DNA of 64,000 bases, from assembly GCF_900105735.1 (NCBI RefSeq), contig NZ_LT629793.1, positions 5,890,001-5,954,000 on the forward strand, given 5' to 3'. The stretch's first letter is position 1. Each line of letters opens with the position of its first letter. Shown here piece after piece: positions 1,207 through 9,114 of this stretch. The notes below the pieces were generated by a model. The model made no database searches, was not told the DNA's origin, and saw nothing but the letters and a program-made list of their open reading frames with translations. Position numbers and translations under genes: made by a program. Source of the stretch: Pseudomonas yamanorum. GTDB lineage: Bacteria; Pseudomonadota; Gammaproteobacteria; Pseudomonadales; Pseudomonadaceae.

Positions 1207-1587
1207 ATGAAAGTTTCGCGTTTGTTGATGTGTTTGCCCCTGTTGGTGGTGGGGTGCAAGACGCATCTGGCGCCGGTGTATTACTCACCGCAGTATCAGG
1301 CGGACGGGTTGCCGAGCCAGTGCCAGCAGCCGCCGGCCAAGGATGAGATTGGGTTGGATGAGGATTTCAAGGCGACCTTGCCGTTGGGGTGTGCCAACAA
1401 TTTGAATTTGATGCAGATGGTGGAGCAGCGGCAGGATTTGAATCAGGGGCGGGCCACCGGCCCGGCGATGGCGGCGCCGGTTGGGCGGGCGGCGCAGGTG
1501 TATATCGAGGGGTTTGATCGGGAGCAGTTGCAGCGGCGTCAGGCTCAGCAAGAGGCCAAGGCGGGCGCTCCGGGAGCGGAGAAATGA
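1207..1587 (+). CDS. small lipoprotein next to secretin (CpaD/Y4xK-like position)
   Basis: Predicted 126-residue outer-membrane lipoprotein. The start at 1207 is chosen because GAGGGGG lies 6 bases upstream and gives a classical lipoprotein signal (MKVSRLLMCLPLLVVGC) with the lipobox cysteine at residue 17. The mature part is short, Gln/Pro-rich and ends in a charged helix (EQLQRRQAQQEAKAG). It holds a LGCANNLNLMQMVEQ stretch resembling the CpaD family of Tad pilus lipoproteins. Placed directly after the secretin, it probably assists secretin assembly or outer-membrane anchoring, as the equivalent small lipoprotein after rhcC2 in rhizobia may do. Function is inferred from position and the lipobox. 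Confidence 0.6.
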   Translation: MKVSRLLMCLPLLVVGCKTHLAPVYYSPQYQADGLPSQCQQPPAKDEIGLDEDFKATLPLGCANNLNLMQMVEQRQDLNQGRATGPAMAAPVGRAAQVYIEGFDREQLQRRQAQQEAKAGAPGAEK

Positions 1588-1610
1588 TCCGTCATGCACA
1601 TTCCCCCTTT

Positions 1611-1855
1611 GGGAGCTGGCTTGACTGCGATAGCAGTATTCCAGCCCCAGCAGATCTATCTGTCACACCACAGTCCAACTGTGGGAGCTGGCTTGCCTGC
1701 GATAGCAGTATCCCAGCCCCAGAAGATCCATCTGCCACACCACCGACCCAATGTGGGAGCTGGCTTGCCTGCGATAGCGGTATTCCAGACCCAGCAGATC
1801 CATCTGCCACACCACCATCCAAATGTGGGAGCGGGCTTGCTCGCGAAAGCGGACT
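1611..1855. repeat. tandem 72-bp REP-containing repeat, four copies
   Basis: Copies of GGGAGCTGGCTTG occur at 1611, 1683, 1755 and 1827, an exact 72-bp period. Each unit has a Pseudomonas REP core followed by a spacer (CCAGCCCCAGCAGATC-like). The last copy diverges to GGGAGCGGGCTTGCTCGCG. The period is a multiple of three and no stop codon interrupts the forward frame. The array follows the secretin/lipoprotein gene pair immediately. Confidence 0.85.
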
Positions 1856-1887
1856 GATAGGCGACCAGGATCTTGAAGCTTACCGCG

Positions 1888-2190
1888 TACATATCCATTC
1901 CTGCGGTAACGGCCACTTAGGGTTCCGCTCTTACAGCGGGTCACTTTTGGCAAACGCCCCAAAAGTAACCAAAAGGTCTTTGCCCCACCACTCGGTGCCT
2001 CGCCTAGGCTCGGCATGCCCGCACTCCGGCCCGGCTCCGCGGGTCGCTGCGATGGGCCATCCCTGGCCCAGCGCAGCTAAACCGGCATCCTTGCCGGTTT
2101 ACCCGCTCCACCGTGCCTGCTTGCGGCCATCGTGGTTAACGGGGCCTGATAGATCAAAAGCAAGATCAAAAGCAGGGCAACAGCAAGGTT
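1888..2190. repeat. single arm of the long intergenic repeat
   Basis: About 300 bp beginning CATATCC, then TTCCGCTCTTACAGCG, AAAAGTAACCAAAAGG and GCCCCACCACTCGG, several small hairpins (for example AAACCGGCAT / GCCGGTTT), and an AATCAAAAGC-like A-rich tail. The same arm recurs in both orientations at 20.98-22.89, 30.91-31.74 and 40.73-41.46 kb. Here only one arm is present. It separates the secretin/lipoprotein pair from the convergent TPR gene. Apparent reading frames inside it are not considered genes. Confidence 0.85.
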
Positions 2191-2195
2191 ACCCT

Positions 2196-2960
2196 TTAGT
2201 GCGTATCCACCAGCCCCAACTCGCGCGCTTGCGCAACCGGGTCGCTGATGCCTTTGATGCGGTTGGCTTCGGTGATCAGGCGTGCGCGCTCAGCGGCCGG
2301 AATATCGTCCAGCGGCAAGCTGGCCACTCGCTGTTCGTATCCCGCCAATACCAGCACCAACAACTCATTACGTTGATGCCGTGGCAACGCGCGGGGCGAT
2401 TGGGTGACGGGGGCGATGGTGTCCAACGCCTGTTGGGACTGGCCGCCAAGGGCGTAGGCCAGGGCCAGGTTGCAGCGGCTGTCGAGGTCGTCGGGTTGCA
2501 GGCTCAGGGCTTTGGCGAAGGCGGTTTGTGCCGTCACCGCCTGGCCGTTCAGCACGTGGGCGATGCCCAGTCGGGTGTACGCGACCGGCGATTGGCTGGC
2601 GTCTGCGGCCTGGCCCAGGGCGGTCACGGCGCGTTGGGTTTTGCCCAGTCGCAGTTGCGCGGTGCCCAGGCCCAGCAAGGCTTCGGCGTTGTGCGCCTGG
2701 AGGCCGAGGGCTTGTTGGAAGGCGCGTTCGGCACCGGGCGCGTCGTTGCCGTCGAGCCGTGCCTGGCCGAGTTTGAGCCACAAATCGATGCCGGCGCCCG
2801 GTTGCTGGGCCGCACGTTCGTACAGCGCCGCCGCGCTGGCGTAGTCGCCGCGTTTGTTCAGGTCGTTGGCCAGCTTTACCGAGCGGTCGGAATCGCTCGG
2901 CACAGTACTGGAACAGGCGGCCAGCAACAGGCTGCCGGCAAGCAAAAAGTGTTTGGTCAT
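2196..2960 (-). CDS. TadD-like TPR lipoprotein of the T3SS locus
   Basis: 254-residue lipoprotein with tetratricopeptide repeats. The start at 2960 gives a lipoprotein signal (MTKHFLLAGSLLLAACSS, lipobox LAAC). An alternative ATG 33 bases upstream would spoil the signal. At least four TPR helix pairs follow (for example GDYASAAALYERAAQQP, AERAFQQALGLQAHNAEALL, QTAFAKALSLQPDDLDSRC). TadD proteins of Tad pili share this build and act in secretin localisation. It lies between the two secretin genes, on the opposite strand and divergent from rhcC1 (48 bp apart). A TPR gene between the split secretin genes is also known from rhizobial-like T3SS loci of P. syringae. Likely role: secretin pilotin or assembly factor (inferred). 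Confidence 0.7.
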   Translation of the reverse strand: MTKHFLLAGSLLLAACSSTVPSDSDRSVKLANDLNKRGDYASAAALYERAAQQPGAGIDLWLKLGQARLDGNDAPGAERAFQQALGLQAHNAEALLGLGTAQLRLGKTQRAVTALGQAADASQSPVAYTRLGIAHVLNGQAVTAQTAFAKALSLQPDDLDSRCNLALAYALGGQSQQALDTIAPVTQSPRALPRHQRNELLVLVLAGYEQRVASLPLDDIPAAERARLITEANRIKGISDPVAQARELGLVDTH

Positions 2961-3008
2961 CGTCACAACTCGTTGGGCGAAGGCGGACGTCATGTAAGCA
3001 TATTTTCC

Positions 3009-3575
3009 ATGGCGCTCCTATGTCTGTCGGTGCTGTTTGGCGCCTCGATCGCCCACGCCGACGAAGAGCCCGAATGGTTTGCCAAACCCTACGCCTACGT
3101 TCTGGTGGACCAGGACGTACGCGCCGCCCTCGAAGAGTTCGGCCACAACCTCGACATCCCGCTGGTGCTCTCGGACAAGGTGCGTGGCAAGGCCCGCAGC
3201 ACCGTGCGCGCAGCCACCGCCGGGGAGTTTCTGCAGACGTTGTGCAGCACCAACGGCCTGACCTGGTACTTCGACGGCAACCTGCTGTACCTCAATGCCA
3301 GCGACGAAATCACCACTAAGCTGTTCAAGGCCAACGCCCTGAACCTGGACCAGTTGCAGGCGTATTTGAACAACCTCGATGTGTTCGGCCAGCAGTTGTC
3401 GATGCGCAATGGTCCCGAGGGCGATGAAGTCTTTGTGTCCGGGCCGCCGCCGTACCTGGCGCTGGTCCAGCAGCATGTGGATCACCTGCAACCCAAGGCC
3501 AACCCGCCTGTCGTGGCGCGCGAGCACGGCGTGCGGGTATTTCGCGGTGCCCAGGTGAGCACCGAAACCCCTTGA
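3009..3575 (+). CDS. rhcC1: T3SS secretin N-terminal component RhcC1/NolW
   Basis: 188-residue periplasmic or outer-membrane protein equal to the N-terminal N0/N1 domains of a T3SS secretin, without any pore domain. A signal peptide (MALLCLSVLFGASIAHA) is followed by mature DEEPEWF. The segment up to about residue 95 holds the N0-type fold (VDQDVRAALEEFGHNLDIPLV, LTWYFDGNLLYLNASDE). The next part (LDQLQAYLNNLDVFGQ ... VFVSGPPPYLALVQQHVD) is the N1-type fold. A free-standing secretin N-domain protein is the hallmark of the rhizobial T3SS (NolW/RhcC1), with the pore on RhcC2. The signal has a short uncharged n-region and no clear ribosome site, and the frame is open further upstream, so the exact start is uncertain. 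Confidence 0.85.
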   Translation: MALLCLSVLFGASIAHADEEPEWFAKPYAYVLVDQDVRAALEEFGHNLDIPLVLSDKVRGKARSTVRAATAGEFLQTLCSTNGLTWYFDGNLLYLNASDEITTKLFKANALNLDQLQAYLNNLDVFGQQLSMRNGPEGDEVFVSGPPPYLALVQQHVDHLQPKANPPVVAREHGVRVFRGAQVSTETP

Positions 3576-5685: not shown

Positions 5686-6256
5686 ATTACCCAACCGTCC
5701 CGCCGCCCGGATTTTGCGTGCCGACGAAGCGGCCTTGTGGACCGATGGTTTCGCCTTCGTGCAAGCTGCCAAGGAACACGCCGAGCAGATCAAGGCCGAC
5801 AGCGACCAGTGGCTGCACACCGCACGTGCCGAAGGCTTTGAGAGCGCCCGCCGGGAAGGCGCCGAACAGGTCGCGCAGCTGCTGCTGGAGACCCAGGCCA
5901 AGGTCCAGCATTACCTGGCCGGGCTTGAGGCGTCGCTGGCGGACCTGGCCCTGGGCATCGTGCGTGAAGTGCTCGGCGAGCTGGACGACACCGACCGCGT
6001 GGTGCGTTGTACACGCCAGGCGTTGAGCGCGTTTCGCCAAGGCCAGGCGCTGACCTTGTGGGTGCCGCCGGCCGAAGTGAATGCCCTGCGCCCACAGTTG
6101 CTGAAGGACGGCATCGCCGTGGAGGCCGATGCGCAACTGGGCGCCGGCCAGGCCCGCCTCAGCAGCCCCGCGGGCTCGGTTGAGTTGGGGCTGGAAGCGC
6201 AGCTGCAAACCCTGCGCCGCAGCTTGCTGCCCTTTGCTGAAGAGGGCGTGGCATGA
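5678..6256 (+). CDS. sctL: T3SS stator protein SctL (RhcL/NolV)
   Basis: 192-residue ATPase regulator/stator related to FliH and YscL. The ATG at 5678 overlaps the end of nolU and is chosen over upstream in-frame options lying inside that gene. The N-terminal part is a long charged helix (EHAEQIKADSDQWLHTARAEGFESARREGAEQ), and the C-terminal part is the globular FliH/HrpE fold (LADLALGIVREVLGELDD, VNALRPQLLKDGI, SVELGLEAQLQTLRRSL). It binds SctN and SctQ in the sorting platform. It overlaps sctN by 4 bases. Confidence 0.9.
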   Translation: MSELPNRPAARILRADEAALWTDGFAFVQAAKEHAEQIKADSDQWLHTARAEGFESARREGAEQVAQLLLETQAKVQHYLAGLEASLADLALGIVREVLGELDDTDRVVRCTRQALSAFRQGQALTLWVPPAEVNALRPQLLKDGIAVEADAQLGAGQARLSSPAGSVELGLEAQLQTLRRSLLPFAEEGVA

Positions 6257-7575
6257 ACCTCAATCAACTGCTGCCGCGCCTGACCGAGCGGCTGTCCCAG
6301 GCCCGTTTGCGTCCGATGCAAGGCACGGTGCTGAGTATTCGCGGGGTGTTGCTGCGGGCCAGCGTAGCGGGGGCGAGCATCGGCGAGCTGTGCCACCTGC
6401 GCGACCCGGTGAGTGGCCGCAGCCTCAGTGCCGAAGTGATTGGGTTTGATGGTGATGAAGCGATCCTGTCGCCCATCGGTTCCATGGAAGGCCTGTCGAC
6501 CCGTACGCAAATCATCGCCACCGGCGAAAGCCTCGGTGTGGCGGTAGGCGATGCGCAACTGGGGCGGGTGATCAACCCCATGGGCGAGTTTCTTGATGGT
6601 GACGGTGTACCGCCGACCTTGAACTTGCAGACTTACCCCTTGCACGCCGAGCCGCCGGCGCCGTTCTCACGGCAACTGATCGTACGCTCCATGGCGTTGG
6701 GCATTCGCTCCATCGATGGGTTGCTGACCCTTGCCCAGGGCCAGCGTATGGGCATCTTCGGTGAGCCCGGTGTGGGCAAATCTTCGTTGTTGGCGAGCAT
6801 CATCCGCAACAGCGAGGCCGATGTGATTGTCATCGGTTTGATCGGCGAGCGGGGCAGGGAAGTGCGCGAACTGCTGGACGTGCAACTGGACGCCAGGGCC
6901 CGCGCACGCACCGTTGCTGTCGTCGCCACCTCCGACCGCCCGGCGGCCGAGCGGGTGCGTGCGGCGTTTGTCGCCACCACCCTGGCTGAGTACCACCGCG
7001 ACCAGGGCCGTAACGTATTGCTGTTGATGGACAGCCTCACACGATTCGCCCGGGCCCAGCGTGAGATCGGCTTGGCCGTGGGTGAGCCACCGACACGTCG
7101 CGGCTATCCACCGTCGTTTTTCGCCACCTTGCCCAAGTTGCTGGAACGCGCCGGCCCGGGGCCCACCGGCAGTATCACCGCGCTGTACACCGTGCTTACC
7201 GAAGGCGACGCCGCCAGCGATCCGGTTGCCGAAGAAGCGCGTTCGATCCTCGACGGGCACATCGCCCTCAGTGCCGAACTGGCCCAGCGCAACTACTTCC
7301 CGGCGGTGGACGTGCTGCGCAGTCGCAGCCGGTTGATGGAGCAGGTGGCGGGTGAGGAACATAAACGTCTGGCAATGCGTATCCGAGAACTGATGGCGCG
7401 TTACGGCGAAATCGAAATGCTGATCCGCGTCGGCGAGTACTCCGCCGGCAGCGACCCCCTGGCCGACGAAGCAATCACCCGTCATGGCGCGATTGAAGCC
7501 TTCCTGCGCCAGAACGCCGACGAACCCAGCAGCCCCGAACACACCTTGACCCGCATGCGCCAGGTGCTCGCATGA
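6253..7575 (+). CDS. sctN: T3SS ATPase SctN (RhcN)
   Basis: 440-residue cytoplasmic hexameric ATPase that unfolds substrates and detaches chaperones. Walker A GEPGVGKS is at residues 170-177, the family motif GLIGERGREVRELL follows, and the Walker B strand NVLLLMDS has Asp260. PPTRRGYPPSFFATLPKLLERAG is the conserved substrate-channel region (residues split here for readability: PPTRRGYPP then PKLLERAG). Full length for the family, no frameshift. The stop overlaps a downstream ATG (ATGA at 7572). Its last approximately 35 bases are copied in every unit of the 183-bp array that follows. Confidence 0.97.
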   Translation: MNLNQLLPRLTERLSQARLRPMQGTVLSIRGVLLRASVAGASIGELCHLRDPVSGRSLSAEVIGFDGDEAILSPIGSMEGLSTRTQIIATGESLGVAVGDAQLGRVINPMGEFLDGDGVPPTLNLQTYPLHAEPPAPFSRQLIVRSMALGIRSIDGLLTLAQGQRMGIFGEPGVGKSSLLASIIRNSEADVIVIGLIGERGREVRELLDVQLDARARARTVAVVATSDRPAAERVRAAFVATTLAEYHRDQGRNVLLLMDSLTRFARAQREIGLAVGEPPTRRGYPPSFFATLPKLLERAGPGPTGSITALYTVLTEGDAASDPVAEEARSILDGHIALSAELAQRNYFPAVDVLRSRSRLMEQVAGEEHKRLAMRIRELMARYGEIEMLIRVGEYSAGSDPLADEAITRHGAIEAFLRQNADEPSSPEHTLTRMRQVLA

Positions 7576-8675
7576 GCCCGAAAGCACAGCAAGATCCAGT
7601 GTGGGAGCTGTCGAGCTTCAGCGAGGCTGCGATGGCGGCAGCACTGCCGACATCGATGTTGCCTGACCCACCGCTATCGCAGCCTCGCCGGGGCTCGACA
7701 GCTCCCACATTTGATCTTCATACACTCCTTAAACCGCATGGGTCAGGTGCTGGCATGAACCTGAAAGCGCAGCGCGATCCAGTGTGGGAGCTGTCGAGCT
7801 TCAGCGAGGCTGCGATGGCGTCAGCACAGCCGACATCAATGTTGCCTGACCCACCGCTTTCGCAGCCTCGCCGGGGCTCGACAGCTCCCACATTTGATCT
7901 TCATGTACCCCTTGACCCGCATGGGCCCGATGCTTGCACGAGCCCGAAAGCGCAGCGCGATCCCGTGTGGGAGCTATCGAGCTGCAGCGAGGCTGCGATG
8001 GCTTCAGCACAGCCAACATCAATGTTGCCTGACCCACCGCTATCGCAGCCTCGCCGGGGCTCGACAGCTCCCACATTTGATCTGCATGCACACCGTGACC
8101 CGCATGCGCCAGGTGCTCGCATGAGCCTGAAAGCACAGCAAGGTCCAGTGTGGGAGCTGTCGAGCTTTAGCGAGGCTGCGATGGCGGCAGCACTGCCAAC
8201 ATCGATGTTGCCTGACCCACCGCTTTCGCAGCCTCGCCGGGGCTCGACAGCTCCCACATTTGATCTGCATGCACACCTTGACCCGCATGCGCCAGGTGCT
8301 CGCATGAGCCTGAAAGCACAGCAAGATCCAGTGTGGGAGCTGTCGAGCTTTAGCGAGGCTGCGATGGCGGCAGCACGGCCAACATCGATGTTGCCTGACC
8401 CACCGCTTTCGCAGCCTCGCCGGGGCTCGACAGCTCCCACATTTGATCTTCATGCACTCCTTGATCCGCATGCGGCAGGTGCTGGCATGAGCCCGAAAGC
8501 GCAGCAAGGTCCAGTGTGGGAGCTGTCGAGCTTCAGCGAGGCTGCGATGGCGGCAGCACTGCTGACATCGATGTTGCAGTGTTGCCGGGGCTCGACAGCT
8601 CCCACATTCGATCTTCATGCACTCAGTGAGTGCGCTGTTGGTATGACGATGGAGAAAAGAACCGATGAAGACTGA
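7572..8675 (+). other. uninterrupted frame through the REPIN array, coupled to sctN and sctO
   Basis: From an ATG overlapping the sctN stop (ATGA) the forward frame stays open for 367 codons and stops 11 bases inside sctO. It would encode about six 61-residue repeats (each with WELSSFSEAAMA, SMLPDPPLSQPRRGS and FDLHA-like blocks). The content is entirely the REPIN tandem array and is also partly open on the other strand, so a functional protein is doubtful. The frame may nevertheless be translated and keep ribosomes moving across the array, sparing sctO-sctU from polarity. It is reported as a frame, not as a confident gene. Confidence 0.3.
7601..8605. repeat. 183-bp tandem REPIN array inside the T3SS operon, six units
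   Basis: The sequence GTGGGAGCTGTCGAGC begins at 7601, 7784, 7967 (one base changed in the arm), 8150, 8333 and 8516, a constant 183-bp period. Each unit holds this arm and its inverted partner about 92 bp further on (7693-7708 in unit 1), together a REPIN. A duplicate of the sctN 3' end follows (ACCCGCATGCGCCAGGTGCT-like, then CATGAGCC). The last unit has lost part of the REPIN interior. Units differ at only a few positions. The period equals 61 codons. Confidence 0.95.
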
Positions 8676-9114
8676 ACAACTGCGCACCTTGCAAACCCTG
8701 CGGGTGCTGCGGGAACAACGGGCGGCGAGCCAGTTGGCGGCGCAACAGCAACGTTGCGCGCAAACCCACGGCGCCCTGACTGATGCCAAGGAGCAATTGC
8801 GCTTGCACCGTGAAGCCGTTGCCCGTGAAGCCGGCGAGATTTACGCCTCACTCACAGAGGGCTTGTCGGTGGCCAGTTGGCAGGCCGCCCAGGATCGCCT
8901 GCGGGGCTTGTCCGATGATGAGCGCTTGCTTGAGGGTGACGTCAGCCACGTCTCCAGCACCCTGCAAACCCAGGAGCGCGAGCGTGAGCTGTTTCGCCAG
9001 GAGCGCCTGAGCCGCCAGCGCCAGTCCGACGCCTGGCAAAGCCTGCTGGACGGGCGCGAAAGCTGCGAGCGGGTCGCCGGTGAGTTGCTTGAAGAACAAG
9101 GACTCGGCACATGA
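8665..9114 (+). CDS. sctO: T3SS central stalk protein SctO (YscO/FliJ-like)
   Basis: 149-residue, highly charged, almost entirely helical protein (LREQRAASQLAAQQQRCAQ ... QTQERERELFRQERLSRQR), as expected for the coiled-coil stalk that inserts into the SctN hexamer. There is little sequence conservation in this family. The call rests on coiled-coil character, length of about 150 residues and position between SctN and SctQ. GGAG lies 10 bases upstream of the ATG. The end overlaps sctQ by 4 bases (ATGA). Confidence 0.85.
   Translation: MKTEQLRTLQTLRVLREQRAASQLAAQQQRCAQTHGALTDAKEQLRLHREAVAREAGEIYASLTEGLSVASWQAAQDRLRGLSDDERLLEGDVSHVSSTLQTQERERELFRQERLSRQRQSDAWQSLLDGRESCERVAGELLEEQGLGT

What the first reader, a model, noticed from the sequence alone, without database searches (positions are those of the whole stretch)
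7601..8605. 183-bp REPIN tandem array inside the T3SS operon, in frame and coupled at both ends
Six near-identical units, each a REPIN plus a duplicate of the sctN 3' end, separate sctN from sctO. The period is exactly 61 codons, and the frame starting in the sctN stop (ATGA) is open to within sctO. Expansion or contraction by whole units would therefore preserve the frame, ribosome flow and spacing. The array could be a phase-variable or attenuating element that tunes the ratio of SctN to SctO-SctU, or simply a tolerated expansion.
Basis: partly seen in the sequence, partly recalled or inferred. Interest (0 to 1): 0.8.

Follow-up and report, generated by a model that had tools for sequence, protein, structure and literature searches.

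The report
Repeat array bridging two secretion genes
Between two genes of a bacterial type III secretion operon lies a six-copy array of a mobile hairpin repeat, and comparison with related bacteria suggests that repeats persist there only if they leave an open reading frame linking the two genes, so that ribosomes can probably pass from one to the next.

Summary
The array is real: five 183-bp units plus one shortened by 18 bp, between sctN and sctO. Each unit is a REPIN (a hairpin made of two REP repeats) plus a copy of the sctN 3' end. The frame starting in the sctN stop (ATGA, 7572) is open to 8675, inside sctO. Tandem REPIN arrays are known, so the array alone is ordinary.

The junction is not. 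In all 13 that carry REP insertions (gaps 171-1089 bp) the ATGA frame is open to within 50 nt of the sctO start; the two other frames manage it in 1 of 13 each. The same REPIN at 29 other sites here leaves 22 of 174 frames open. Periods read from DNA at this junction are 183, 198 and 192 bp, all whole codons; of 17 control spacings 4 are. Substitutions show no codon-position bias, so translation rather than the peptide seems selected.

Best reading: a length-plastic translated bridge preserving coupling, resembling mycobacterial MIRUs. Copy number varies between strains, but phase variation and ratio tuning are untested, and the relatives are not independent.

The parts
6253..7575 (+). sctN, T3SS ATPase
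   Evidence: NCBIfam SctN models E 3.6e-176 (PRK06936, 586 bits, cut-off 657) and 9e-176 (TIGR02546, 585 bits, cut-off 605), both below cut-off; FliI/YscN subfamily TIGR01026 above its cut-off
7562..7575 (+). SD-like AGGTG plus ATGA: sctN stop overlapping the start of the bridge frame
   Evidence: sequence; sctN ends in ATGA (TTGA in L051 and L069) in the 33 junctions examined
7572..8675 (+). bridge frame: 367 codons, from the sctN stop to 11 nt inside sctO
   Evidence: conserved openness in relatives
7572..7754 (+). unit 1 (183 bp), hairpin 7595-7716
7755..7937 (+). unit 2 (183 bp), hairpin 7778-7899; starts with ATGA, AGGTG at 7745
7938..8120 (+). unit 3 (183 bp), hairpin 7961-8082; its ATG is mutated to ACG
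8121..8303 (+). unit 4 (183 bp), hairpin 8144-8265; ATGA with AGGTG at 8111
8304..8486 (+). unit 5 (183 bp), hairpin 8327-8448; ATGA with AGGTG at 8294
8487..8664 (+). unit 6 with an 18-bp in-frame deletion, hairpin 8510-8613, then the tail to sctO; ATGA with AGGTG at 8477
8637..8646 (+). degenerate last copy of the sctN 3' end (GTTGGTATGA), right edge of the insertion
   Evidence: by comparison with the 16-nt gap relatives
8651..8654 (+). GGAG, SD-like element of sctO
   Evidence: sequence; a GGAG- or GGA-bearing element at a similar place in most relatives
8665..9114 (+). sctO (YscO/HrpB7-like)
   Evidence: Pfam YscO E 1.9e-4, 21.9 bits, below the gathering cut-off of 28.8; no NCBIfam match; position in the operon

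Best explanation
The sctN-sctO junction is a translational-coupling site. In relatives without repeats the sctN stop overlaps the sctO start (ATGA) or, most often, lies 16 nt before it. REPINs have inserted at this junction, in most cases with a second, short and often degenerate copy of the sctN 3' end on the far side, and in some lineages the insert was amplified in tandem. Only inserts and amplifications that kept the ATGA frame open up to sctO persisted, because ribosomes that finish sctN restart at the ATGA and translate through the hairpins to sctO. This keeps sctO supplied with ribosomes and the mRNA covered, which should limit Rho-dependent polarity and nuclease attack on the hairpins. 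The array is thus mobile filler turned into a length-plastic translated bridge. Shown: the array, copy-number differences between strains, frame conservation, whole-codon periods, and no codon-position bias. Inferred: translation, reinitiation, and the reason for selection.
For: Frame 0 reaches within 50 nt of the sctO ATG in 13 of 13 complete REP-bearing junctions (first stop ends between -31 and +50), against 1 of 13 for each other frame. It also does so in the other 20 of 33 junctions, where gaps are short (102 nt or less) and the evidence weak; in two of these the frame is sctO itself. Same REPIN family at 29 other sites of this genome, +/-35 nt: 22 of 174 frames open. At 10 other REPIN sites between co-directional genes 1 of 10 has an open path, and that one reads on into the downstream gene; 4 of the 10 have no start codon near the upstream stop. 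If one ancestral insertion is assumed, neutral substitution alone would leave 1.9-2.6 of 8 tips open on average, P(all) 0.002-0.010. Tandem spacings here: 183 x5, 198 x2, 192 x1, whole codons in 8 of 8; in four control arrays 4 of 17 (173 x6; 174,174,173,174,175; 203,193,204,203; 394,394). Gap runs inside the window-clade unit alignment are 18, 27, 30, 18 and 18 nt, plus two 2-nt runs at its 3' end, where unit ends and sctO-proximal tails meet. Variable columns by codon position 24/30/29. Of the operon's 8 other junctions from sctJ to sctU, 4 are 4-nt ATGA overlaps (sctJ/K, sctL/N, sctO/Q, sctQ/R) and none leaves more than 10 nt (sctL start placed by me).
Against: sctO has its own SD-like GGAG, so coupling may not be needed. 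L038 stops at -17, and L048 loses the frame and stops at -31; a 1-nt and an 88-nt length difference occur outside the window clade. The relatives are not independent; by my reading at least three insertion events are involved, not 13. In this same window another REP array (1610-1840) follows an ATGA with an open frame (1584-3575) although the next gene is on the other strand, so one open frame can be chance. P0029 seems to carry a frameshift in its last unit and P0005 ends differently. No expression data.
Confidence: 0.68

Rival explanations
1. Plain tolerated REPIN expansion: the frame is open by luck and is neither translated nor selected; sctO initiates from its own SD.
For: Tandem REPIN clusters with flanks are common in SBW25, with a 184-bp spacing peak (PMC3116915, passages and section 11). 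The REPIN is abundant here and forms other arrays. sctO has GGAG at 8651. A second REP array in the window has an open frame without a coupling context.
Against: 13 of 13 against 1 of 13 and 1 of 13 for the frames; controls; whole-codon periods in what look like separate amplifications.
Confidence: 0.2
2. Copy-number-variable tuner: unit gain or loss changes the yield of SctO-SctU relative to SctN, within a population or between strains.
For: Copy numbers 1 (L035, L036, L062), 3 (L034) and 6 (window) in close relatives; 4-unit ORFs in P0002 and P0006; long near-identical units favour recombination (general knowledge); 4 of the 5 later units keep their own AGGTG...ATGA restart site.
Against: Between-strain differences only; no expression or population data; the frame is kept at every copy number seen at DNA level, as plain tolerance with frame filtering also predicts.
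Confidence: 0.1
3. The bridge encodes a functional small protein between SctN and SctO.
For: An open frame at every junction examined; databases list it as a hypothetical protein in several strains.
Against: No third-position bias (24/30/29); length from 7 to 367 codons and unrelated sequences in different lineages; no NCBIfam match at E 0.01.
Confidence: 0.02

Closest known systems
MIRUs (mycobacterial interspersed repetitive units; Supply et al. 1997, not seen itself, only as described in the review PMC12548453, passages)
   Different: Unrelated sequence and host; the repeat here is a REPIN hairpin that happens to be open in one frame; the left overlap belongs to sctN and is copied into each 183-bp unit; no sign that REPINs in this genome generally sit at such overlaps.
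Tandem REPIN clusters of P. fluorescens SBW25 (Bertels and Rainey 2011, PMC3116915; passages and one section seen)
   Same: Head-to-tail REPINs with flanks, a spacing peak at 184 bp, several clusters per genome.
   Different: SBW25's largest has four REPINs plus one REP; this one has six, lies inside an operon, and keeps a reading frame.
REPs near stop codons that stall ribosomes (Liang, Rudd and Deutscher 2015, not seen itself, only as cited in PMC12306157, passages)
   Same: A REP hairpin downstream of an operon gene with a possible effect on translation.
   [quoted passage not shown] in the window 24 nt lie between the sctN stop and the first REP (9 nt in G061). The role proposed here is passage, not stalling.

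Membership tests
Tandem REPIN cluster | Two inverted REPs forming one hairpin per unit | tested here: met
   Six hairpins, -69.6 to -88.3 kcal/mol
Tandem REPIN cluster | Repeated family dispersed in the same genome | tested here: met
   126 matches, both strands and the array itself included
Tandem REPIN cluster | Head-to-tail units that include flanking sequence | tested here: met
   183-bp units carry the sctN 3' end
Tandem REPIN cluster | Cognate RAYT transposase in the genome | not tested
   No RAYT search was run
MIRU | MIRU sequence family in mycobacteria | tested here: not met
   Pseudomonas relatives and a REPIN family dispersed in this genome; no MIRU sequence was compared; not filed as a MIRU
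MIRU | Internal ORF joined to a flanking gene by start/stop overlap | tested here: met
   Left ATGA overlap; right end 11 nt inside sctO here and exactly 4 nt in 6 of 13 complete REP-bearing junctions
MIRU | Repeat inserts preferentially at such overlaps | tested here: inconclusive
   27 other REPIN sites: 16 convergent, 10 co-directional, 1 divergent; no general preference seen, yet several lineages carry REPs at this junction
Phase-variable repeat | Length variants within one strain that switch expression | not testable with these tools
   No reads or expression data

The most novel reading that the evidence does not exclude
A REPIN array has become a translated, expandable coupling module inside an operon: most units carry a restart site and a very stable hairpin, so copy number sets how many ribosomes and transcripts pass from the sctN side to sctO-sctU. 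This would be a MIRU-like device evolved separately in Pseudomonas.
Probability: 0.12. Interest if true: 0.8.

Novelty: new variant of a known kind. Interest (0 to 1): 0.56.

Why it matters
REPINs are usually discussed as extragenic elements. This junction offers a natural experiment in which REP insertions at one operon site seem filtered by reading frame, a readable signature of selection for ribosome continuity. It suggests how mobile repeats can enter tightly coupled operons, gives a second and unrelated case like that reported for MIRUs, and provides a simple comparative test (the frame at REP-bearing operon junctions) usable in other genomes.

Tried and rejected
Rfam: 31 matches, all below gathering score, 27 of 31 to microRNA precursor models that fit long hairpins: taken as artefact. 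Promoter and intrinsic terminator scan of 7400-8800: none found, 0.3 and 0.8 expected. Plasmid collection: no match. Peptide function: rejected for lack of codon-position bias. Widening the species sample: a second genus draw returned the same hit genomes and a third added one.

Paper searches with 0 papers: REPIN with translational coupling, MIRU with DTGA, MIRU with senX3, translational coupling and intergenic, and REP with translational coupling and operon. REPIN with type III secretion, Pseudomonas and intergenic gave 3 papers; of these I saw 12 of 22 passages of PMC3390384, which did not mention this junction. That I know of no earlier report rests on these searches only.

Rows left out: of 36 genomes with a hit among 398, G093 and the four with the weakest hits (G039, G063, G177, G368) were not examined; G061 and G219 are split at the repeat and are not in the 13 or 33. 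L061, L063, L064 and L065 were taken as duplicates of G-handle genomes because contig lengths agree. Of 49 database proteins found I opened 34 and assigned 14 to this junction by their motifs; 11 of 14 have the expected tail, 2 end differently and 1 is cut off. They are selected for being open and were not counted as frame evidence.

Full report
Observation. The window lies in a 7,087,425-bp single-contig genome; the named genomes with the most similar SctO include Pseudomonas sp. ATCC PTA-122608 (99%) and P. yamanorum (93%). A T3SS operon runs sctJ-K-L-N-O-Q-R-S-T-U (sctK and sctO are named from position and weak or no matches). Of its 8 junctions other than sctN/O, 4 are 4-nt ATGA overlaps (sctJ/K, sctL/N, sctO/Q, sctQ/R) and the rest overlap or lie within 10 nt (sctL start placed by me). 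Between sctN (ends 7575) and sctO (starts 8665) lie 1089 bp of tandem repeat with period 183 (TRF 7540-8577) and a last unit 18 bp shorter. Each unit folds into one long hairpin and carries a copy of the sctN 3' end. The frame from the ATG in the sctN stop is open for 367 codons and ends 11 nt inside sctO.

What the array is made of. A 131-bp query from unit 1 has 126 matches in the genome, counting both strands and the array itself, so this is a dispersed REPIN family. Four other tandem arrays of it were examined, with spacings 173 (six times), 174/174/173/174/175, 203/193/204/203 and 394/394; in each, all six frames contain stops. Bertels and Rainey described 16 ordered tandem REPIN clusters in SBW25 and a 184-bp spacing peak (PMC3116915, passages and section 11). 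The form is known.

History at this junction. SctO was sought in 398 genus genomes; 36 had a match. With three named contigs and one further genome, 33 complete junctions were read: 13 with REP insertions, 11 with a 16-nt gap, 2 with the ATGA overlap, and 7 with other short gaps (31-102 nt). Window-clade relatives carry one REPIN (G274, G072, IPO3778), three (G296) or six (window). In most REP-bearing junctions a second, often degenerate copy of the sctN 3' end follows the REPIN, then a short SD-bearing spacer like that of the empty site, as if the insertion came with a duplication of the target region; in L038 it is hardly recognisable. The tree puts L040 (241 bp, a different REP type) beside the 16-nt-gap rows L042 and L041. 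L048/L067 (444/544 bp) carry an extra element, though L067 also has a REPIN-like right part that aligns with L043. The remaining REPINs could be one ancestral insertion with later losses, or several. I read this as at least three insertion events.

The amplifications look separate too. The window period is 183 bp with about 35 bp of sctN. G296 has 198 bp with a longer sctN piece. P. yamanorum IPO3780 has 192 bp, one spacing read from a contig end. All three are whole codons. Database ORFs show 61-, 66- and 64-residue periods, with one 57, in other strains; these are selected for openness and are not counted.

The frame test. In 13 of 13 complete REP-bearing junctions the first frame-0 stop ends between -31 and +50 of the sctO ATG; frames 1 and 2 reach -50 in 1 of 13 each. 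The two split genomes do not contradict it: G219 reads open to 4 nt inside sctO with the phase taken from the contig overlap; G061 reads open in the left piece and one of the three frames of its right piece ends in the expected tail, but the phase across the missing middle is unknown. Controls: the same REPIN family at 29 other sites, +/-35 nt, has 22 of 174 frames open (35 of 174 at 20 nt, 13 of 174 at 50 nt). At 27 REPIN sites with flanking genes called by a simple codon-usage caller of mine, 16 are convergent, 1 divergent and 10 co-directional. Of those 10, 1 has an open path (it reads into the downstream gene itself), 5 have starts near the upstream stop whose frames close 87 nt or more before the next gene, and 4 have no such start. 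Shuffled inserts are open to -31 with P 0.0965 (L040), 0.0145 (L048) and 0.0075 (L067). Assuming one ancestral insertion and substitutions only, 8 one-copy tips would all stay open with P 0.002-0.010. Expected new stops were 3.8, 3.7 and 0.5 in three groups, against 0, 1 (L038, near the end) and none by substitution in L067, while L048 stops at -31 after a frame change. Variation is spread evenly over codon positions (24/30/29), so the peptide does not seem to be what is conserved.

Results against. sctO has its own SD-like GGAG (8651-8654). L038 stops at -17, and L048 leaves the frame and stops at -31. P0029 looks frameshifted in its last unit and P0005 ends differently (both read from protein letters only). 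Some control spacings are whole codons too (174 three times, 204 once, 4 of 17). In this window a 72-bp REP array (1610-1840) also follows an ATGA with an open frame to 3575, although the next gene (2196-2993) is on the other strand; one open frame therefore proves little. Tree relations make the 13 rows non-independent.

How it most likely works. Ribosomes ending sctN restart at the overlapping ATG, helped by AGGTG 5 nt before it, translate through the hairpins, and stop next to the sctO start, where they restart or free its SD. In the window 4 of the 5 later units repeat the restart site. Translation through the array would keep about 1 kb of otherwise bare, hairpin-rich RNA covered; Rho polarity on untranslated RNA is described in PMC12548453 (passages), while nuclease attack on long hairpins is my own knowledge. 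These steps are inferred. The same review describes MIRUs as repeats whose ORF becomes coupled at the insertion site; this junction works like that but is not a MIRU.

Verdict. Observation confirmed. The array is an ordinary kind of element in an unusual place; the filtered reading frame is the finding. Phase variation or ratio tuning remains open.

Noticed in passing
window 1584-3575, array 1610-1840: A 72-bp, 3.2-copy REP array right after a gene (1189-1587, weak CpaD match below cut-off) that ends in ATGA; the ATGA frame is open to 3575 although the next gene (2196-2993, TPR) is on the other strand.
   Followed up: partly
window 3012-3575: SctC-like ORF: the 187 aa tested match only the T3SS secretin N0 domain (PF21304), no secretin core, so the gene may be split or truncated.
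   Followed up: no
L018, L021, L010, L020 (G000:C1 around 6767177-6768497, 108274-109259, 1060449-1061364, 4324550-4325462): Other tandem REPIN arrays of the same family, spacings 173, 173-175, 193-204 and 394; three of the four lie between convergent genes by my gene caller.
   Followed up: partly
L048 and L067 sctN-sctO gap; window roughly 1900-2200: Similar stretches (translated PKVTKRS...HHSVPRLGSACPHSG) sit beside REPs in two different places, suggesting a further repeat element.
   Followed up: no
window 7595-8613: Rfam microRNA precursor models match the hairpins below threshold, an artefact of near-perfect inverted repeats.
   Followed up: yes
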